A stretch of 61,474 bases of DNA from a virus: positions 1-61,474 of IMG/VR virus record IMGVR_UViG_3300050132_000042; one strand, written 5' to 3'. The position numbers and the translations under genes were made by a program. Of the stretch, positions 29,090 to 55,721 are shown in pieces. The number at the start of each line of letters is the position of its first letter. Positions within the stretch are counted from its first letter, which is position 1. Under the pieces are notes generated by a model that did not search any database, was not told the DNA's origin, and saw only the letters and a list, made by a program, of their open reading frames with translations.

Positions 29090-30235
29090 CTACGTCTTGA
29101 TGATGAAGTTGACGGTGACATACGGAGGAAGCGACGTGGCAGTAGTGGCTGTACCACTCACGGCCCCGGTATTACCCGTTGAACTCGGAGTGGCATGGCC
29201 ATTCTCGAAGACGTACCCAGGAGCCCCTTCAGCGCTTGCATCGGCTGTTTCAATACTTGGCCCGACGTGGACGTGAGCGATCAGGGCTTGTGCCGAACCG
29301 CCTGAAGCGCCGAGTGCGTACGACCCATTGTGGCCGATGGGGAAGTTGCCGCCCATGTTGGGCACATTGAAGGTCAACGAGCCATCGCCTGCGCCATATG
29401 TCGTGCTGATTGCAGTGAACAATGCCGCATAGGTTGCACGGCTCACGGCTGAGCCATCGCAGAGCAGGAACCCGGAGGGCGCGGACGATCCGCCGAATGG
29501 CAGAATAGCTGCCACAGGGACAGATGATGCCGGAGTGACGGAATATTGGGATGGGACTGGATTCACCAGTACAAACGATGTCGTTGCAGCATCCCAGAAG
29601 CATTCGTAAATGACACCGCTTACGATGTCACCAGCTTGTACTGCTGACCCATCATTTCGCACAAGCGGATGAGTGCCTGAACCCACATCAAGAGTGCCAG
29701 CAGTCGTGCTGGTCGTACTGGCCTTGAACGCAAATCTCATACCTCTATAGAGTTGCGCGGTGCCGGGGATGGTGGCAATAACAAATGCATTCGTGCCCCC
29801 TGTATCAATCGCATAGTTACCTGCACATGCTGTATTGCCGCCGCCCCACACGGCCCAATCCACGTTATCGACATTGGCGAACGTGTTCGGGTCACTACTT
29901 GCCCCAGCAGTCAAGCACTGGAATGAGTGAGAGAAATCATTAGATGCGATCACAGCGCCGATAGGATAACCCACAGCGGACGCAAAGGAACTATCCCACT
30001 TAAAGCGACCCCCTGCGTTGCTGTAGACGAGCACCGAACTCAACTCATAATATATGCCATTGAAGTCCTGCCCCGCAGGGGGGACGCCACCGGAACTGAT
30101 TGGCTCCATGGTGACAGGTGGAAATCCATCATGCCACGATGCGTTAGGCGATGCTGATGGATACGAAATGATATTCTTCAGCCCAGCATATGCAAAGGGC
30201 TGCTGGAGGATGGTGGGGTATGCTGGACCGCTCAT
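29090..30235 (-). CDS. Tail fibre / receptor-binding protein with collar domain
   Basis: 381 residues. The N-terminal about 100 residues are probably the attachment region. The C-terminal half contains the phage tail collar pattern ILPFGGSSAPSGFLLCDGS then TYGAGDGSLTFNVPNMGGNF. Low-complexity Gly/Ser/Thr strands and a C-terminal PPYVTVNFIIKT complete it, typical for short-tail-fibre tips. It is the last tail gene before the lysis cassette. Confidence 0.85.
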   Translation of the reverse strand: MSGPAYPTILQQPFAYAGLKNIISYPSASPNASWHDGFPPVTMEPISSGGVPPAGQDFNGIYYELSSVLVYSNAGGRFKWDSSFASAVGYPIGAVIASNDFSHSFQCLTAGASSDPNTFANVDNVDWAVWGGGNTACAGNYAIDTGGTNAFVIATIPGTAQLYRGMRFAFKASTTSTTAGTLDVGSGTHPLVRNDGSAVQAGDIVSGVIYECFWDAATTSFVLVNPVPSQYSVTPASSVPVAAILPFGGSSAPSGFLLCDGSAVSRATYAALFTAISTTYGAGDGSLTFNVPNMGGNFPIGHNGSYALGASGGSAQALIAHVHVGPSIETADASAEGAPGYVFENGHATPSSTGNTGAVSGTATTATSLPPYVTVNFIIKT

Positions 30236-38657: not shown

Positions 38658-40244
38658 TCAGTGCCCCGTGTTCGCGTGTGCTGCTATGCGGCTGGCCCAC
38701 TCGCTGTTCATCGCGTCTGAGAACGCCGCAGCATGTTCGGCGGGATCAGTGCTTGGCGTGTGGATGTGAACCTGCTCGACTCGGAATGATGGCAAGCCAC
38801 CCATGCCGAGACTGGCGGGAATCTGCTGAGTGCGCTCAAGATTGTAATCAGCCGTGAAGAACTGTTCCTGAAGCTGCTGCTGTTTGGGGCTGATCGCGGT
38901 CATGTTGAACGGCGATGCTGCTGGCACAGTAAGCGCTTTCATCGTGTCGGGCGTGATCGCGCGAGCAATATCATTGGCCAGCAGATGAGCGCCGCCGATC
39001 ATGTTCTTCAGGAAGTGGACGATCTTGTACGGGATGTCGAACACCTCCCATAGCAGTTGGCGGAAGAATCGCATAAGCGCATCTTTGAATAGCTCCATCA
39101 CCTTGTTAGCGTGATGCTCAGCTTCCAGTTCATTGCCAGCGAAGAACGCCTTATACATCAAGGTCAGTTCCGAGAGCCCCTCCTTGGCTACCTGGAGTGT
39201 GCCTCTGCTGCCTGGGATCAGTGCTTCAGCCAGTGGCAACCACTTGTCCCATTCGACGTACATCTCGTATGCGCCTGCGCCAAGCAACCCAATGGCCACA
39301 GACGCAGCCGCAACTGTGGCCATGACCGGCGACAACGTGAGCGTGAGGCCAGCGGCGGCAATCGCAGCGGCAGTGAGCCCAGTCGCCATGCCGATGAATG
39401 CGGCTTTCATTCCATCGGGGTGCTGCTTAGCCCACAAGCCGATCTTCTCCAGCACGTCTGAGATCACCTTGAGCGCTGGCATGACGATCCCCATGATCGT
39501 GTCACGGGCGAGGCTCTTGCCCATCAGCCCCAGCGCGTTCCACTGCTCCTTCAGTTGCTCTGATGCGTTCGCTTCCTGCTGCGTGAACATGCCGAGTGAT
39601 GCCGCCTTGTTCTTCAGTTCTTCGATGCCTTCAGACCCCTTGCGAAGAACACGGATGAACGCTTCGTCCAAACCAATGCGCGAGCCGAGCCGGTTCGCTT
39701 CCATCAGCGGCATCTCTTTCATCTTCGTCGAAAGCTGATCGAGCACTTCGAGGATGTCTGCCTTCTTGCCCTTGGCTAGTCCGGTGATGCCCGCAGCCTG
39801 AAGCACCTTCAACGCGCGCTCGGCACGCGGCAGGTTCTTCTCGATATCGACGAGCGAGCCGCCGAGACCCTTCATGCTCTGCTGGAAACCTTCGACTGTG
39901 CCATCAGCCAGAACGACTGCGCCCTGCCACTTCTGCACTTCCTCGATGTTGAGCCCAAGCATCTCGGTGAGACGGCTGGTGCTGATTTCTGCTTCCATCG
40001 TGCCCTTGACGAACTCCTTCATCTCCATGCCGCCTGCGATGAACGCGAAGAACGTCGCAGCCTTCTCAAGCATGTGATCGTAGAACTCGCCTGCGACAGC
40101 ACCTTGCTCGCTGATCTCCCGTGCTGATTCCTTGGCCTGCACTTCGAGATGCTTGAGGCTGGTCGTGGCTTCAGCCTCACCCTGCTTCACAGCCTTGGTG
40201 TCGAGCCCGAGAGTGAGCAGAAGCGATTCTATGATTGTCGGCAT
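38658..40244 (-). CDS. Tape measure protein
   Basis: 528 residues, helical with coiled coils, a central Ala/Gly-rich membrane-like stretch (FIGMATGLTAAAIAAAGLTL, AAASVAIGLLGAGAYEM) and a C-terminal folded tail. It lies directly downstream of the two chaperone frames. The length predicts a short contractile tail (roughly 80 nm by the usual 1.5 angstrom per residue rule). Confidence 0.87.
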   Translation of the reverse strand: MPTIIESLLLTLGLDTKAVKQGEAEATTSLKHLEVQAKESAREISEQGAVAGEFYDHMLEKAATFFAFIAGGMEMKEFVKGTMEAEISTSRLTEMLGLNIEEVQKWQGAVVLADGTVEGFQQSMKGLGGSLVDIEKNLPRAERALKVLQAAGITGLAKGKKADILEVLDQLSTKMKEMPLMEANRLGSRIGLDEAFIRVLRKGSEGIEELKNKAASLGMFTQQEANASEQLKEQWNALGLMGKSLARDTIMGIVMPALKVISDVLEKIGLWAKQHPDGMKAAFIGMATGLTAAAIAAAGLTLTLSPVMATVAAASVAIGLLGAGAYEMYVEWDKWLPLAEALIPGSRGTLQVAKEGLSELTLMYKAFFAGNELEAEHHANKVMELFKDALMRFFRQLLWEVFDIPYKIVHFLKNMIGGAHLLANDIARAITPDTMKALTVPAASPFNMTAISPKQQQLQEQFFTADYNLERTQQIPASLGMGGLPSFRVEQVHIHTPSTDPAEHAAAFSDAMNSEWASRIAAHANTGH

Positions 40245-40884: not shown

Positions 40885-41331
40885 TTATGAAAGCGGGTTG
40901 ACCTGAACGATCTGCCATGTGATCTCGAACTCCTGCGGGCTGAGGATCTTCTTGGCAGACGGGATCGGCGTGTAGTTGGTGAGCCAGCCGGTCGTGCAGA
41001 TGAAGCTCTTGCCGATGCCGGGGAGCGCGATCACAGCGGACGCGGAGTATGACTTGCGCGAAAGCTGCTGCGCAGTGTACCACGCGTCGAAGATCGGGAT
41101 CGACGGGCTATCAGGTGACAGGTGGATCTTCTGCACGACGGCAGCATAGACCATGCCGCCGCTCAGCGTGCCATCGGCACCCATCACCACTTCGGTCGGC
41201 TTGACCGCGTCGGTGTCGAACATATCATCGGGCGCGAAGCCCTTGATGGCGATGGGCGGGCCGAACAGATCGGAGATCGTGAGGATGAAACTCGCGCTCG
41301 CGGCTTCAATCGTCTTGTTGAATAGCGACAT
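40885..41331 (-). CDS. Tail tube protein (DUF3277-type)
   Basis: 148 residues. It begins with SASFILTISDLFGPPIAIKG, continues with LSGGMVYAAVVQKIHLSPDS, and ends EFEITWQIVQVNPL. These match phage tube proteins of the KC/DUF3277 group found next to DUF3383-type sheaths. It polymerises inside the sheath. GAAAGGATAGGCC precedes the ATG. Confidence 0.87.
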   Translation of the reverse strand: MSLFNKTIEAASASFILTISDLFGPPIAIKGFAPDDMFDTDAVKPTEVVMGADGTLSGGMVYAAVVQKIHLSPDSPSIPIFDAWYTAQQLSRKSYSASAVIALPGIGKSFICTTGWLTNYTPIPSAKKILSPQEFEITWQIVQVNPLS

Positions 41332-41486: not shown

Positions 41487-42992
41487 TCACTGAATGTCAA
41501 TTGAGTTGAGGACGATCTGCTGAATGCTGCCGCCATCGGTGTACCAGAGATTGCATGCCGGTGATAGTCTCTGCCCCCGCACCGTGGGATCAGTGACAGG
41601 AACAACCTGGAAGAAGTAGCCGTTGTTCTGGAGCGGCGAACTGATGTCTAAGCCAGCCTGAGAATTGACTAGAGAAAGTTGAAGGGGGGAAAGAGCAACG
41701 CCAGTACGGATAACGCCATTCTGAAGCGCCTGAGTGATTGGGCCCTGAGCCGCCGCCGCAATCATGGAGTACCCCTCAGTGTTGTATGGCAGAGAATTGA
41801 CCTGGGCGAACAACTCCATAAGAGAAAGCTGGAGCGCATTGTTCAACCAAATAGCATCGACATATTCATCAATCCACAGATTGTTGCCACTGATTTGTCC
41901 GTTGTAGAATAGCAAGAACTGCTGATCAGCAGTGGCGTAGTCACCATAAAAGCTGTAGCCGTTGTCTTGAAGATTAGCAGCAGTAACGGGGTCAGTGACC
42001 TTCAAGAGAAGATTGGGGTTCCCCTTGAACGCATAACTAATACGACCATTAAGCGCGTTGAAGTTAATCGCCGCAGTGACACCAAGCACGAAGGCGGCAA
42101 GCTCAGGGCCATCAATTACATTAGGCGCCGCGCCAGCCCATACAGCAGCAGTTCCATTGGGCTGATTATCAGCGAGCCACTTGCCAAACCCAGTGAACGT
42201 TCCAGACGTTTCAGCAGCAGTCGGATCATTGTCCCACCCCACGTACATATATCGGCCCCTACTACCTGATGCCCACTCGGAGAATGCTTCCATATCAGCG
42301 GAATCAGGGAGGAACGTCGTAGCGAAGCTCACCCAGTTCTGAGTGTAGTTCACCAACGCATTCATGAACGTGGTGGGGTCGGTCATTGCTGCTCCCTGTG
42401 AGAGTGTCCCTCCGGTGTCCTGAGTGAAGCCTAGAGCAGCGGCCATCGTGCCCGTGGCGAAGGTGATCGTGCTGAGTGCGCCGGTCGTGTTGCTGGTGCA
42501 GATGAACGCATTGATCGTGCTGTCGTAGGAGATCGTCGCGAGAGGCAACGAGAGTGCAGTAGTCAGGTCAGTCGCGATGCTGGCAAGACTCGCTTCAGTG
42601 CTGAGATCGATGGAAGAAATAGCCGATACACTACCATCAACGGTAATAGATAGGCTACCAGATGTGAACGTCTTCAGAGTAGCGAGTGTTGCAGCTGGGC
42701 CACCAAGTAGAAATGCCGCAATGGCGACTTCAGGGTACCGCGCAAACAACAACGACGCTGGGACTTGAGTGGCACCATTATACCCCAAGAAATAGATCTG
42801 CGCCATCTTCGCCTCGATGCTATTCGAGCCAAAGAATGCGGCGACTGACGCGTAGTTGGGGAACGAGATGGGCGGGCCAGCCGCGACATCGGGATTAGTA
42901 CTCAAGATCACACCAGTAAACTTGAGTGGGTTTCCCCCAGCACCAACTACTCCGGGGATGACGTTAACGAGATTTGAAGCTGGGATCGACAC
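41487..42992 (-). CDS. Tail sheath protein (DUF3383-type)
   Basis: 501 residues from GTG 42992 with AGGAGCTAAACC upstream. N-terminal VNVIPGVVGAGGNPL, then FFGSNSIEAKMAQIYFLG, a central SITVDGSVSAISSIDLS insertion, and YMYVGWDNDPTAAET, WADNQPNG-type and EGYSMIAAAAQGPITQ-type core blocks of the DUF3383 sheath family. It forms the contractile layer around the tube. The adjacent upstream gene repeats its N-terminal domain. Confidence 0.92.
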   Translation of the reverse strand: MSIPASNLVNVIPGVVGAGGNPLKFTGVILSTNPDVAAGPPISFPNYASVAAFFGSNSIEAKMAQIYFLGYNGATQVPASLLFARYPEVAIAAFLLGGPAATLATLKTFTSGSLSITVDGSVSAISSIDLSTEASLASIATDLTTALSLPLATISYDSTINAFICTSNTTGALSTITFATGTMAAALGFTQDTGGTLSQGAAMTDPTTFMNALVNYTQNWVSFATTFLPDSADMEAFSEWASGSRGRYMYVGWDNDPTAAETSGTFTGFGKWLADNQPNGTAAVWAGAAPNVIDGPELAAFVLGVTAAINFNALNGRISYAFKGNPNLLLKVTDPVTAANLQDNGYSFYGDYATADQQFLLFYNGQISGNNLWIDEYVDAIWLNNALQLSLMELFAQVNSLPYNTEGYSMIAAAAQGPITQALQNGVIRTGVALSPLQLSLVNSQAGLDISSPLQNNGYFFQVVPVTDPTVRGQRLSPACNLWYTDGGSIQQIVLNSIDIQ

Positions 42993-43047
42993 GGTTTAGC
43001 TCCTGTGTGATTGGTTGGACTGCTGCTCTTGCATCATGCTGAGTACC

Positions 43048-44925
43048 CTATCCGACTGCTATGTTTCCATCAGGCGCGTTGAAGTTGTAGACATTGATGA
43101 CGATGTACTGGTACGCCAGCGTCACGACAATCGAGTCACCCGGATTGGCATCTTCATTAACAGAGAACGTAAGCACGTCGGTATTCTGCCCGCTGGTGAT
43201 CGTGCAATTTGGAGAAATGCCCCAAGTCATGAATGTCGGCTGCGTGCCATTCATGGTGCCCCCTGGATGGCCGCAATTCTGCCCCGTGACAGTGACCCCT
43301 GTCTCTCCGGGGACAGGACTCGGGTTAGAAAAATTCATTGCGAAGTCAGACGCCGGGTTCCAGCACGCCCCCGAGCACGAGAATGATTGCCCCGTGTAGA
43401 CGCCCCCCGTGACGTCCAGTTGAACTGAATACGGAGCGCCACTGCTATACCCGACCTGCGGCTCAAGCATCGCTTCGGTCGTGCCCTGGCCAGAAACCAC
43501 TACCGCGCTGCCATCGGGACTTGACCATGTCCCCGTGTCAGAATGATTGAGCGGAGCAAGACACATGGCCATCCCGCCCATTCCGGAGAACAGAAGTTCT
43601 GGAAATGCTAGTCCCCCTGGGATTGGTGGTGCGTTGCCGAACGTTGAACTGTGCAGGATAGAGCCATCGGGTAGCATCTCGCCGATCCCAGTACCGGGGC
43701 TGCCAAGCCAGCCGGATGGTAGCGTGTTCACGTCGACACCTTGGTACTGCAAGACGCCCGTGACGGGGTTCACATTGAGTTCGTACGAGAAGACTTCGCC
43801 ACCATCAGTAACGAGCCCGTACTGAGGCCCCTGGAACTCTACCTGCGACACCAACATCGCTCGACCACCTGTCGGGAAACAAGTACCCTGCTGCTGATTC
43901 GGGGCGAAGTCGAACAGCCCAGTGTACGCTTCGGCCTGCCACACATCACCGATGTTTTCCAGAATCCCCGTGGAGCCTGGGGTGGCGTCCATGCCCCATA
44001 GGTCAGAACCGGCAAAGCTGAAGAACCCCGAGATAGATACTCCTTCAGGGTTGCTTTGCAATGGGTTCCACACATCTCCAATGAGTGCGTAGTTGTTTCC
44101 GGCGTGTCGATCATAGACGACGAGAGCACTTCTGCCATCTGCCGCCCATACGAAACAAGGTTGCGGGCTGAATGATCCTTCACCACCTTGATAAAGAACG
44201 AGGATGGGGCTCCATGATCCGCTGGTGCCGGTCCAATACGCGAACGAGTGGTTGTTGATTCCAAGAATGGAGACGATGTCGTTCAGATCAACGGCCACCC
44301 ACGGGAACCCGCCGAAGTTCCACGTCTCAGTTTCAAACGTGGTGTCAGTCGGCAGCACAATCTCGTCCCATGCACCGCCCCCCACTGATGCATCGGTGGC
44401 GCGCATCCAGATATGCGGCACACCGCTGACGAACCCGAACACGTAAACGAACGCAGCGGTCGCAATGATGCCCGCATTGCGGTCAGTCGTCGAATCCAAC
44501 GTGAGCGGCAACGCAGCCCACAGTACATCAGTGGCCGCTCCATCCCATCTGTTCACGGTTGCCAGATCGGGATTCAGATGGAAGATGTGCGAGTGGTCTA
44601 CTGCTGATGCACGATCAGAAAGATAATAGTACGTCGACGTTTCAGGAGGCGGCGGACCACCCCCACCATAAAATGCGAAAAACAATGTGCTGGGGGTCTT
44701 GCTCGCATTCGTGAATGCGTCGAAGTACACTCTGGCCATTCTTGCTTCTTTGCTGTTCGCACCGAAGAACGTGGCCACCGCGTCATAGCTGGTGAACTTC
44801 GTCGGCGCACCCGCAGGGCAGGCGATGTTGTTGGTCAAGATCATGCCGTTCATGTCGAGAGGGTTGCCGCCCGCACCGAGCACGCTTGGAATGACGTTGA
44901 CCAGATTCGATGCTGGAATGCTCAT
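43048..44925 (-). CDS. Sheath-like N-terminal domain fused to a large beta-rich (propeller/Ig-like) region
   Basis: 625 residues. Residues 1-86 align with the true sheath N-terminus: MSIPASNLVNVIP, GAGGNP, FFGANSKEARMARVYF against FFGSNSIEAKMAQIYF, and PSTLFFAFY against PASLLFARY. Then comes a GGGGPPPP linker, about 400 residues of repeated strands (FPWVAVDLNDIVSILGINN, YALIGDVWNPL, GSDLWGMDAT) like a beta-propeller, and a Cys-containing Ig-like end (GVTVTGQNCGHPGG). The sheath core is absent. It may cap or decorate the sheath or carry a receptor-binding head. No known family is recognised for the large part. Confidence 0.72.
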   Translation of the reverse strand: MSIPASNLVNVIPSVLGAGGNPLDMNGMILTNNIACPAGAPTKFTSYDAVATFFGANSKEARMARVYFDAFTNASKTPSTLFFAFYGGGGPPPPETSTYYYLSDRASAVDHSHIFHLNPDLATVNRWDGAATDVLWAALPLTLDSTTDRNAGIIATAAFVYVFGFVSGVPHIWMRATDASVGGGAWDEIVLPTDTTFETETWNFGGFPWVAVDLNDIVSILGINNHSFAYWTGTSGSWSPILVLYQGGEGSFSPQPCFVWAADGRSALVVYDRHAGNNYALIGDVWNPLQSNPEGVSISGFFSFAGSDLWGMDATPGSTGILENIGDVWQAEAYTGLFDFAPNQQQGTCFPTGGRAMLVSQVEFQGPQYGLVTDGGEVFSYELNVNPVTGVLQYQGVDVNTLPSGWLGSPGTGIGEMLPDGSILHSSTFGNAPPIPGGLAFPELLFSGMGGMAMCLAPLNHSDTGTWSSPDGSAVVVSGQGTTEAMLEPQVGYSSGAPYSVQLDVTGGVYTGQSFSCSGACWNPASDFAMNFSNPSPVPGETGVTVTGQNCGHPGGTMNGTQPTFMTWGISPNCTITSGQNTDVLTFSVNEDANPGDSIVVTLAYQYIVINVYNFNAPDGNIAVG

Positions 44926-45479
44926 GCGTCTATCTCCACATCAATGATGCCGACTTCGATGGTGTCGGTCGCGAACGACGGCACATTGAACTCAAGGACT
45001 GGGTTGACCTGCATGTACACATTCACGATCCAGCGAGACTCCCACTGCTGCTCACCATTCACCCATGGCGAGTGCTTGGGGTCGTCGGCATAGAGCGGGA
45101 AGATGTTGTACGCTGCGAGGAAGTCAGTCGACACGTCACTGAACCAGAGCGTGCTGAGCGCCTGGGACCAATCACCAGCAGTAGGGCCGACACAGTCAAG
45201 CTGGAGCCCATACTTGGTCGGCTGCATCGTCGAGCGAACTGTGGTGGTCGTCGAGCCGATCATGCTCACGCTGACCTCGTCGCGGTACGCGTCAATATTA
45301 GTTGCGATGCGCGGCTTGGCCAGATGGTTCATCACGATGTACGGCGGCTTGGGCATTGACACGCGATTATCCACGTCGCCGACAACCTCGCCGCCTGGAT
45401 CAATGATGTACGCAAGCAGAAACGCGCGTACTCCCGCGAGAATGTCTTCATCAGTGAGTGACGGAACGATCTGAGTCAT
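44922..45479 (-). CDS. Tail terminator / neck protein
   Basis: 185 residues from ATG 45479. It starts MTQIVPSLTDEDILAGVRAF and has PPYIVMNHLAKPRIATNIDA with central SRWIVNVYMQVNPVLEFNVP. The layout resembles phage neck terminator (LIC12616-like) proteins encoded just before sheath genes. It likely caps the tail for joining to the head. It overlaps both neighbours. Confidence 0.78.
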   Translation of the reverse strand: MTQIVPSLTDEDILAGVRAFLLAYIIDPGGEVVGDVDNRVSMPKPPYIVMNHLAKPRIATNIDAYRDEVSVSMIGSTTTTVRSTMQPTKYGLQLDCVGPTAGDWSQALSTLWFSDVSTDFLAAYNIFPLYADDPKHSPWVNGEQQWESRWIVNVYMQVNPVLEFNVPSFATDTIEVGIIDVEIDA

Positions 45480-45850
45480 CAGTCCACCTGCTGCTGAATG
45501 ATGACGCTGCACCAGTCGGGCCACTGTTCCATGACCTGCACGAGCAGCCACGTCACACCATTGATCACGAAGATGTCGCCACCCTGACCAGTGCGGCGAA
45601 CGAGACTGCTGAGTTGCCCATCACCATAGACCTTGCGCAGAATGCCGCCGATATTCAGGGAGTTCATGTGCTTGATCAGAGACTCGCTCATGCCCTGAAG
45701 CTGGATACTGATCGTAATGTCGCCCGCGTATGTGGGGGTGCGCGTGCCAGATGCGGCAGTGCTATAGCCAAGCGACTGCCGGTACGTGACCTGGATGGGC
45801 GGGTTCACCGACGCGATGCATGGGCCTGCGATGTCGTGGAGGTTCATCAT
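45479..45850 (-). CDS. Head-tail connector / tail completion protein
   Basis: 123 residues. Beta-rich with GDITISIQLQGMSESLIKHM and GGDIFVINGVTWLLVQVMEQ. Its place between the gp10-like and terminator genes fits a neck or stopper protein. Start is one of two adjacent ATGs (45850/45847) overlapping the upstream stop. Confidence 0.7.
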   Translation of the reverse strand: MMNLHDIAGPCIASVNPPIQVTYRQSLGYSTAASGTRTPTYAGDITISIQLQGMSESLIKHMNSLNIGGILRKVYGDGQLSSLVRRTGQGGDIFVINGVTWLLVQVMEQWPDWCSVIIQQQVD

Positions 45851-53269: not shown

Positions 53270-53578
53270 TCATTGCACACCGCCATTCTGCACGAGCAAT
53301 TGGCCGCTTAGCACGATTGTATTTCCCTGGTCTGTTACTGCGATGGCCGATAGAAGATATGTAACACCGCTCAGACCACCCTCGATTCGCTGTGAACTGA
53401 TATTTCCGGTCACAGTCGTCGGCCCCGTGATCATGTCTCCGGCGTTGGGGTCGCTGCTGATGACTGCCGCGCTGGTCGTGGATGCGCTCGTGATTGACTC
53501 GCCAGCCGAAAGGAGCTTGGTGAAATCCATGCTCACGATAATGGACTCTCGGGGGTCTTTCGCACTGAACGACTTCAT
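53270..53578 (-). CDS. Small beta-rich protein
   Basis: 102 residues. Likely a single Ig-like domain with VTGNISSQRIEGGLSGVTYL and a final GNTIVLSGQLLV strand pair. Phage proteins of this type occur near portal or capsid genes. Its ATG overlaps the end of the repeat protein gene. Confidence 0.68.
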   Translation of the reverse strand: MKSFSAKDPRESIIVSMDFTKLLSAGESITSASTTSAAVISSDPNAGDMITGPTTVTGNISSQRIEGGLSGVTYLLSAIAVTDQGNTIVLSGQLLVQNGGVQ

Positions 53579-54918
53579 GCGGCTACCTCTCTGATTCTTG
53601 GCTGTCCGCTGATGCTGTGCATGACTGAATAATTCACAGCGATAACGTAGACTCTTGGTTGCGCTGAGATTATAGATTGTCTTGGGTCGCCGCTGACAAC
53701 ATACACCCGCGCGTCACCCGCCACCAGATATTTTAAATTTACCAGCAACGGGGTGTAGCCCTTGACGAAGTCGGCCAACCCGCCCGCTGTAATCACACCC
53801 GAACCGACGACGCCTCGTCCCAGGTTGATAGATGCAGCCCCCAGCGCGAGTACGCCGTCTGCGCCTGTGATAGACAGGGACTTCTGCCATGCGGCTGAAC
53901 TGAGCACCAGGACGCCGCCTGCTCCTACATAGCCGACTCTGACATTCAACTGCGCCGACGATCCAGTGACCACTCCACCGTTCGCATCTGCCACCAAGCT
54001 GAGCTTCGCGAGTGCTGACCCATCTGCGTCAACCCCGCCTGAAGCTACAGGTCGCGCAGACAAGCGGAATGCGCCGATCCCACTCAACGTCGCGCCACCC
54101 GTGCCAGTCCACTCCAGATGAAGTGCGCTCTGTGACTTGCTGAAGATGGCTGCGCCAGATGCAGTGATACCGCCAACTCCTGCGTGAATCAGCCCGAAGT
54201 TATACGCAGCCAGCCCACTCAGGGTGGCCCCGCCGATTGACGTGGCTGCGAGCCCCTTGCTCGTGATGGCGGCACTGCTGCTCACTATGCCACCAGCCCC
54301 GATGCTATGACTCGCACAGATGAACGCGGCGTTGCCTGTGGCAGCAGCACCGCCCATGCTCACGTTGTTCAGCGCTTGATAGGAACTGGCCGATGACGAC
54401 GTGACAACGCCGCCTGAGCCGGTCGATGCTGCAATGAAGTTGCCGAAGAACTGCGCTCGACTGACGTTGCGTATGGTTGACCCAGCCGCCTTGTCCATGT
54501 TTTTGCGAGTGAGACGAAGATCATGAGTGATGTTGCGATATTTCCACCGGGTCGTCTGCATTCTCGACACGACAGCGGAACTGCTTGCTGCAACACCGCT
54601 GAGTGCTGGCTGCTTGTCAGCAGTCTTGGAGAAGAATCGATCAGTCGTGAGTCTGAACACGACCCCACTGCCCCGCATGTTGACACAGGTAAGACGCAGA
54701 TCATTGGTGATGTTCTTGCGCGTGAATCTGCTGGTCTGCGCTCTTGCGACGATGGCAGTGCTGCCTGATGCTGAACCTGAAAGCGCAGGCTGCTTATCGT
54801 TCATGTGACCAAAGAACTCACGCGTCGACACGCGGAACACGACGCCATTGCCCTGACCCAGATTGGTTCGGGTCAGGCGCGGGTCGCGCGTGAGATTCTT
54901 ATAGCCCCAGTTGCTCAT
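53575..54918 (-). CDS. Repeat-rich Gly/Ser/Ala protein, adhesin-like
   Basis: 447 residues from ATG 54918. Three N-terminal repeats of about 55-60 residues, each opening like YKNLTRDPRLTRTN, RKNITNDLRLTCVN and YRNITHDLRLTRKN. The middle has about nine shorter repeats of the type GAGGIVSSSAA or GIGGATLSGLAAY every about 25-30 residues. The C-terminal GDARVYVVSGDPRQ and AQPRVYVIAV are further repeats. It reads as a beta-roll or fibrous head decoration. No known family is recognised. Confidence 0.7.
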   Translation of the reverse strand: MSNWGYKNLTRDPRLTRTNLGQGNGVVFRVSTREFFGHMNDKQPALSGSASGSTAIVARAQTSRFTRKNITNDLRLTCVNMRGSGVVFRLTTDRFFSKTADKQPALSGVAASSSAVVSRMQTTRWKYRNITHDLRLTRKNMDKAAGSTIRNVSRAQFFGNFIAASTGSGGVVTSSSASSYQALNNVSMGGAAATGNAAFICASHSIGAGGIVSSSAAITSKGLAATSIGGATLSGLAAYNFGLIHAGVGGITASGAAIFSKSQSALHLEWTGTGGATLSGIGAFRLSARPVASGGVDADGSALAKLSLVADANGGVVTGSSAQLNVRVGYVGAGGVLVLSSAAWQKSLSITGADGVLALGAASINLGRGVVGSGVITAGGLADFVKGYTPLLVNLKYLVAGDARVYVVSGDPRQSIISAQPRVYVIAVNYSVMHSISGQPRIREVAA

Positions 54919-55721
54919 TTGTCGATGATGTCCAGAGTTCCGGCGATGGCGGCACCATTGGCGGTGCCCGCTAGATATGCCCACATGAGACAGGCGTTGG
55001 CGTTGTCGATCTGCGGCAAGCCGATGGATGCCCAATCGAATGACTGCCCCGCGCCCAGAACGGGAATGGGGATCTCCAGCAAGCGCTTGGCCAGCAGGAT
55101 GCCGAAGCTGCCCGAGGTCCAGGTCTGGTTGGTGGCGGCGCTGACCACCTGGGACACGCCGAGAGACGATGGGTCAAGCGGGATGGGCTGAAGCTGCGCG
55201 AGGGCAGGGGCCGACACGACTGCACCGATAACGCCGCTCTTGGCTGCTCCGAGCGTATCGAGATAGTTCAGGGTCAACGTGCCGGATGCTGCACCATTCG
55301 CAGCAAGCGTGTCGACCCACGCTTCAACGCCGACACCACCATCAGTGATGCGGGCAGGCAGCGAGCCAGGGGTGGTGACGGTGTAGGTGTTCGCTGCGAA
55401 GCCCATGCCGCCGCAGCACCAGAGCCGATCCAACAGGATCAGCGTTCCAGGCTGTGCGCAGCCCAGCGTCAATCTGGCCAGCCACGCCTGCACTGAGCAT
55501 GGCGGGTAGTATTGCGCGCCAGGAGTGGCGGCGCTGCATTGATAGCCTGAACCGGAGTTGTACGCTGGGGCTGCACCGCCCGCGCCTGGGAATCCAGCGG
55601 CAGACCATCCACTCACGAATGAACCAGCCGCTTTTGGTGCAGCGATGGTCTTCAGGAACCGAGACGACTTGCGGTTGTTGGCAAGTGCGGACGCGATATC
55701 GTCGACAGTGGAAATGCTCAT
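54915..55721 (-). CDS. Structural protein, unknown
   Basis: 268 residues with Cys-containing segments (YQCSAATPGAQYYPPCSVQ, LWCCGGMGFAANTYTVTTPG). The C-terminal half is beta-rich (PLDPSSLGVSQVVSAATNQT). A minor capsid or decoration protein is likely from its place in the head module. No known family is recognised. Confidence 0.68.
   Translation of the reverse strand: MSISTVDDIASALANNRKSSRFLKTIAAPKAAGSFVSGWSAAGFPGAGGAAPAYNSGSGYQCSAATPGAQYYPPCSVQAWLARLTLGCAQPGTLILLDRLWCCGGMGFAANTYTVTTPGSLPARITDGGVGVEAWVDTLAANGAASGTLTLNYLDTLGAAKSGVIGAVVSAPALAQLQPIPLDPSSLGVSQVVSAATNQTWTSGSFGILLAKRLLEIPIPVLGAGQSFDWASIGLPQIDNANACLMWAYLAGTANGAAIAGTLDIIDK

What the first reader, a model, noticed from the sequence alone, without database searches (positions are those of the whole stretch)
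43048..44925. Second sheath-like protein: sheath N-terminal domain fused to a large beta-propeller-like/Ig-like region
The first about 86 residues match the adjacent true sheath (41487-42992) block for block: both start MSIPASNLVNVIP, share GAGGNP, and have FFGxNSxEAxMAxxYF and PxxLxFAxY. A GGGGPPPP linker then leads to some 530 residues of strand-rich sequence with no sheath core. The gene sits immediately upstream of the real sheath and is co-oriented. This looks like a gene-duplication chimera that could place a display or receptor-binding head on the tail surface, or act as an initiator or terminator subunit of the sheath. I know of no described phage protein with this arrangement.
Basis: partly seen in the sequence, partly recalled or inferred. 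Interest (0 to 1): 0.92.

Follow-up and report, generated by a model that had tools for sequence, protein, structure and literature searches.

The report
Sheath N-domain fused to unknown head
An environmental contractile-tailed phage carries, next to its tail-sheath gene, a second gene whose first 86 residues copy the sheath's docking arm and first core lobe and whose other 539 residues are an unrelated acidic domain, most likely a virion protein hung on the tail by a borrowed sheath anchor.

Summary
ORF 43048-44925(-) (625 aa) starts with 86 residues of sheath (DUF3383 E=1.6e-16; 56% identical to the adjacent sheath; the AlphaFold model of residues 1-96 matches E217/Pa193 sheath chains). The other 539 residues resemble neither sheath nor anything searched; they contain no lysine and are strongly acidic. 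The break falls near the sheath's core-to-surface-domain boundary: N-arm and first core lobe are kept; the rest of the core, C-terminal beta-turn and C-arm are missing. The 22-residue docking arm is 91% identical to that of the phage's own sheath, against 53+/-11% for comparable sheath pairs, although synonymous sites have diverged: an old duplication with the arm under selection. None of 262 fetched sheath loci nor 561 phage records has a second such gene. The slot between tail terminator and sheath, normally ~12 nt wide, holds tailspike-like or other accessory proteins in a few relatives. I favour an accessory tail display/adhesion protein anchored by a sheath-derived strand-donating arm (confidence 0.5). 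A sheath-cap role or a decaying gene are rivals. "Beta-propeller" is unsupported; an Ig/PKD-like C-terminus is weakly supported. New variant of a known kind; virion location and function are unshown.

The parts
43048..44925 (-). Fusion gene, 625 aa: sheath N-domain (1-86), GGGGPPPP linker (87-94), body (95-625)
   Evidence: coding statistics
44860..44925 (-). Residues 1-22: sheath N-arm, 20 of 22 residues identical to the own sheath; residues 6-12 correspond to the strand that E217 sheath donates to a neighbour
   Evidence: E217 paper PMC10329688
44668..44859 (-). Residues 23-86: first segment of the sheath core
   Evidence: AlphaFold model with 70 sequences and Foldseek match to E217/Pa193 sheath chains; boundaries from PMC11042391
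44644..44667 (-). Linker GGGGPPPP, residues 87-94
   Evidence: sequence
43426..44643 (-). Body, residues 95-500: strand-rich by eye, no lysine, acidic, no relatives found
43051..43425 (-). Residues 501-625: possible Ig/PKD-like C-terminal part
   Evidence: PKD_6 19.8 bits against a cut-off of 25
42993..43047 (-). 55-nt gap with AGGAG before the sheath GTG
41487..42992 (-). True tail sheath, 501 aa, full-length DUF3383
44922..45551 (-). Tail/neck terminator (gateway) gene immediately upstream, overlapping the fusion start
   Evidence: Pfam Phage_tail_terminator_9 5.5e-20
40885..41331 (-). Tail tube protein (E217 gp32 family) downstream of the sheath

Best explanation
An accessory virion protein that uses a duplicated sheath N-domain as its anchor. 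Shown: the N-arm and first core lobe of the phage's own sheath type are present and under protein-level selection, and the remainder is a separate coding body with no sheath homology. Inferred: the N-arm strand pairs with the C-terminal beta-turn of a real sheath subunit, as sheath N-arms do in E217, in low copy number and probably at an end of the sheath where an N-arm partner is missing. The body then projects from the tail where the sheath's surface domain normally begins, and acts as an extra adhesion or receptor-binding head beside the conventional tail fibre.
For: N-domain identity and fold. Arm 91% identical to the own sheath against 53+/-11% for sheath pairs of equal core identity, with 13 of 21 arm codons differing only synonymously. 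Break point at the core-to-surface-domain boundary, the same junction at which complete sheaths carry 18 to 451 aa of extra surface sequence. Same genomic slot holds tailspike-like, pectate-lyase-like or LamG-like proteins in relatives. A conventional tail fibre/collar gene exists at 29090-30235, so the fusion would be accessory.
Against: No relative of the body is known, so its adhesion role rests on position only. No proteomic evidence that it is in the virion. The half-core without its C-terminal half may not be stable alone. No structural test of arm docking was possible. The tailspike-like slot genes of relatives carry other anchors (DUF2793) and could be placed elsewhere in the virion.
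Confidence: 0.5

Rival explanations
1. Sheath-end cap or length/assembly factor: the fusion fills the acceptor sites of the last sheath ring with its N-arm and, lacking a C-terminal beta-turn of its own, stops further sheath addition; the body is a collar or bulk.
For: It has the donor arm but no acceptor beta-turn or C-arm. The gene lies between terminator and sheath.
Against: The terminator ends at the same place as in relatives, so its own sheath-binding C-terminal strand seems to be kept (sequences); relatives make tails without such a gene; a 539-aa body is not needed for capping.
Confidence: 0.2
2. A decaying or neutral by-product: a partial sheath duplication joined by chance to an unrelated ORF, kept for a while without function.
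For: Single occurrence; body has no relatives.
Against: Open frame of 625 codons with coding codon usage; synonymous divergence is saturated while the arm is 91% and the N-domain 56% identical, which needs long-lasting selection.
Confidence: 0.1
3. A non-structural regulator of sheath assembly (chaperone or inhibitor): the N-arm occupies free sheath subunits in the cell to prevent premature polymerisation.
For: The arm would bind sheath beta-turns; expression is probably coupled to the terminator and sheath.
Against: Relatives do without it; the large acidic, tryptophan-rich body resembles no chaperone family.
Confidence: 0.08
4. Assembly artefact joining two genomes.
For: Only one copy of the contig is held; no independent record.
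Against: Two in-frame breakpoints would be needed; no long repeat to drive a misjoin (the best repeats in the region are about 20 nt; the two N-terminal copies are 59% identical in DNA); the operon is otherwise canonical.
Confidence: 0.04

Closest known systems
DUF3383 / PHROG_205 tail sheath (E217 gp31, Pa193 gp32)
   Same: N-arm and first core segment, 28-32% identical to E217/Pa193 in the structure match, 56% to the own sheath
   Different: Lacks the second core segment, C-terminal beta-turn and C-arm; ends in an unrelated 539-aa body
Two-component sheath of jumbo phage PaBG (two sheath paralogues by duplication, PMC7412058)
   Same: Second sheath-derived gene that arose by duplication
   Different: PaBG has two full sheath proteins of similar predicted fold at 38% identity; here only the N-domain is kept
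Multi-domain (type 2/3) sheath proteins with extra Ig-like surface domains (PMC9230969), e.g. L185 here
   Same: Extra sequence placed at the same junction of core and surface domain
   Different: In those the chain returns to the core and remains a sheath subunit; here it does not, and an unmodified sheath is encoded separately
Tailspikes and tail fibres with a particle-binding N-terminal domain; slot genes L180, L184, L186, L163
   Same: Anchor domain plus large head as an architecture; same slot between terminator and sheath
   Different: The anchor in L180/L186 is DUF2793, not sheath; the heads are beta-helix or pectate-lyase-like and unrelated to this body

Membership tests
DUF3383 tail sheath protein | Match above the family's curated score | tested here: met
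   60.8 bits against 34.9, but only over profile positions 2-82 of 493
DUF3383 tail sheath protein | N-arm and first core segment with sheath fold | tested here: met
DUF3383 tail sheath protein | Second core segment, C-terminal beta-turn and C-arm | tested here: not met
   no match beyond residue 86-87
Two-component sheath (PaBG type) | Two complete sheath paralogues | tested here: not met
   one complete sheath and one N-domain only
Multi-domain sheath with surface insertion | Extra domain flanked by both halves of the core | tested here: not met
   body runs to the C-terminus
Tailspike / receptor-binding protein | Homology to a known receptor-binding or depolymerase domain | tested here: not met
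   no match of the body in Pfam, PHROGs, NCBIfam, PDB or phage records
Tailspike / receptor-binding protein | Binds host surface | not testable with these tools
   needs an experiment
Beta-propeller | Repeated blades of about 40-60 residues | tested here: inconclusive
   self-similarity not above shuffles (30 and 26 of 200 reach it); no usable model of the body
Ig/PKD-like domain | Match above the curated score | tested here: not met
   PKD_6 19.8 bits against 25

The most novel reading that the evidence does not exclude
The sheath N-arm plus first core lobe has become a self-contained tail-docking tag: a strand-donating module that lets an unrelated head be grafted onto the contractile sheath as a low-copy subunit, giving the phage receptor-binding heads on the sheath itself and not only at the baseplate.
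Probability: 0.33. Interest if true: 0.8.

Novelty: new variant of a known kind. Interest (0 to 1): 0.58.

Why it matters
If true, it shows a natural route by which a structural lattice protein becomes an anchor for display proteins: duplicate the docking part, replace the rest. It makes a concrete question testable, namely whether a sheath N-arm without a C-terminal acceptor can enter or cap a sheath lattice. It also points to the terminator-sheath interval as a place to look for overlooked adhesion genes in phages with DUF3383 sheaths.

Tried and rejected
Close relatives of the whole protein or of either half of the body in IMG/VR: none. Body against 50,697 phage records, 72,556 plasmids, PDB, Pfam, PHROGs, NCBIfam and 38 whole related virus records: nothing significant. 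Single-sequence AlphaFold of the full protein: unusable (pLDDT 33). Propeller blades by self-alignment: the first test used overlapping windows and was discarded; the second was not significant. Long DNA repeats that would allow recombination between the two N-termini: none. N-only sheath ORFs in relatives: six are cut by contig ends, one (L016) is a frame break within a sheath; none is a second gene. A core-only tree placed the fusion beside phiAO1 (L007), but the program flagged long branches meeting, and the tree constrained to join it with the own sheath is not worse. First scan of genome contigs with the two-sequence alignment found nothing; a wider alignment gave 20 loci, all complete sheaths.

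Full report
Setting. The window is a single virus record of 61,474 bases. The minus strand from about 61 to 28 kb carries head, neck, tail and baseplate genes: protease, major head protein, neck proteins, terminator (44922-45551), the fusion (43048-44925), sheath (41487-42992), tube (40885-41331), tape measure (38658-40244), hub, wedge and a tail fibre/collar protein at 29090-30235.

Observation. The fusion's residues 6-86 match Pfam DUF3383 (positions 2-82 of 493, E=1.6e-16) and residues 1-87 match PHROG_205 tail sheath. The adjacent sheath is complete. Over 86 residues the two are identical at 48 positions. At DNA level they are 59% identical, with 71, 73 and 31% at codon positions 1, 2 and 3: an old divergence with protein-level selection, not a recent copy. 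The gene starts in an ATGA overlap with the terminator and ends 55 nt before the sheath's GTG.

Fold of the N-domain. A model of residues 1-96 from 70 aligned sequences has mean pLDDT 76 (91-93 over residues 41-60), with an extended arm and a strand-strand-helix-helix-strand lobe. Its best PDB matches are the sheath chains of E217 and Pa193, followed mainly by other contractile sheaths; in a library of viral models many of the matches are annotated as sheaths too.

Where the break falls. Papers on E217 (PMC10329688) and Pa193 (PMC11042391) describe an N-arm (1-22 or 1-23), a core of two segments (23-90 and 211-491), a flexible domain between them (91-210), and a C-terminal beta-turn (460-488) and C-arm. 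Fusion residue 86 aligns with E217 residue 86. So the fusion keeps the arm and first core segment, changes over about four residues before the flexible domain, and never returns to the core. In E217 the N-arm contributes a short strand (residues 6-12) to an intersubunit sheet built on another subunit's C-terminal beta-turn.

Arm conservation. Fusion and own sheath share 20 of 22 arm residues (91%). Among 1929 pairs of N-domains whose core parts are 40-50% identical, arm identity averages 53% (sd 11%); two pairs reach 91%, this pair being counted among the 1929. In codons 2-22, six are identical, 13 differ synonymously and two differ in residue, so the arm has been held by selection. Residues 6-12 (SNLVNVI), the strand in E217, are the same in both. 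I read this as a need to fit the same acceptor. The pairs are related sequences, so the count is not a formal probability.

Origin. In a tree of 101 N-domains, fusion and own sheath are sisters (99/90). With the arm removed the free tree does not recover this, but the constrained tree is not rejected (p-AU 0.57; its likelihood is slightly higher than the free search found). In-lineage duplication is favoured, not proven.

Rarity. 262 loci with this sheath type were fetched from IMG/VR, GTDB genomes and phage records (some contigs more than once). 255 ORFs hold both N-domain and C-core; of seven N-only ORFs six run off a contig end and one is a frame break. All 561 phage records with a sheath match have one place each, and 38 whole virus records have one N-domain each.

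The junction as an insertion site. In complete sheaths the stretch between N-domain and C-core is 18 aa in Acetobacter phage phiAO1 (L007) and clusters at about 124, 200 and 270 aa elsewhere, with 451 aa in L185, whose sheath carries similar repeats there. Evseev et al. (PMC9230969) describe extra, often Ig-like, sheath domains away from the tube and suggest roles in adhesion or stability.

The terminator-sheath slot. In 258 relatives with both genes the gap is 12 nt at the median; 15 exceed 150 nt. Contents include proteins of 717-771 aa with a DUF2793 start and beta-helix or pectate-lyase parts, L186 matching tailspike PHROGs (L180, L184, L186), an 835-aa protein matching a pectate-lyase PHROG (L163), a 290-aa weakly LamG-like protein (L057, L058), a second terminator copy and other proteins (L162), unassigned proteins (L164), and HNH-like endonucleases (L068, L227) (the HNH calls are by eye). 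The slot thus takes host-recognition-type genes as well as selfish ones. The window's fusion is the only occupant found with a sheath anchor.

The body. 539 residues without a lysine, net charge about -40, 16 tryptophans. Low lysine is also seen in other structural proteins of this window, so the absence is striking but not isolated. Codon statistics support coding throughout. No relative was found. A C-terminal Ig/PKD-like part is plausible (PKD_6 E=0.001, below cut-off). The propeller idea has no statistical support.

Mechanism. Shown: architecture, fold of the anchor, selection on the arm, slot. Inferred: docking by strand donation to a sheath subunit, low copy number, exposure of the body, adhesion function. 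The lack of a C-terminal acceptor means further sheath subunits could not dock on the fusion in the usual way, which favours a position at a sheath end and leaves a capping role open.

Known or new. Two full-length sheath paralogues are known (PaBG, PMC7412058), multi-domain sheaths are known, and anchor-plus-head receptor-binding proteins are known (general knowledge). A sheath N-domain cut off from its core and joined to an unrelated head was not found in the papers or records searched. I class it as a new variant of a known kind.

Noticed in passing
L180:1738-3888, L184:1734-3887, L186:1586-3898: Tailspike-like genes (DUF2793 N-terminus, beta-helix or pectate-lyase part) sit between tail terminator and sheath in these relatives, an unusual place for a tailspike.
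   Followed up: partly
L162:1821-3992 and L163:63-1430: Terminator proteins with a long Ala/Gly/Ser-repeat N-terminal extension; in L162 this is a second terminator copy in addition to a normal one.
   Followed up: partly
L057:2821-3558, L227:2220-3152, L057:4980-6980: A similar module (G-T-G-T-G-G-x-G-T-Y-T/N-x-S-x-S-Q-T-V-like) occurs in both the terminator and the sheath surface region of related phages (phrog_38233/21413 in L057), suggesting a mobile surface module.
   Followed up: partly
L185:900-3362: 821-aa sheath with three similar repeats of roughly 100 residues in the surface-domain position, the largest insert among the loci fetched.
   Followed up: partly
L007:4001-5161: Sheath of Acetobacter phage phiAO1 (387 aa) lacks the whole surface domain, a natural minimal DUF3383 sheath.
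   Followed up: partly
L016:2936-4796: Sheath split over two overlapping frames within the surface region; sequencing error or frameshift.
   Followed up: no
window 53575-55035(-): 486-aa ORF with repeated Gly/Ala/Ser-rich units and no PHROG match, similar in style to the terminator extensions of L162/L163.
   Followed up: no
(BFVD hits): Several short phage proteins of about 90-250 aa (e.g. FelixO1 O80237, 154 aa) match the N-domain model weakly; they may be fragments of sheath genes or real N-domain-only proteins.
   Followed up: no
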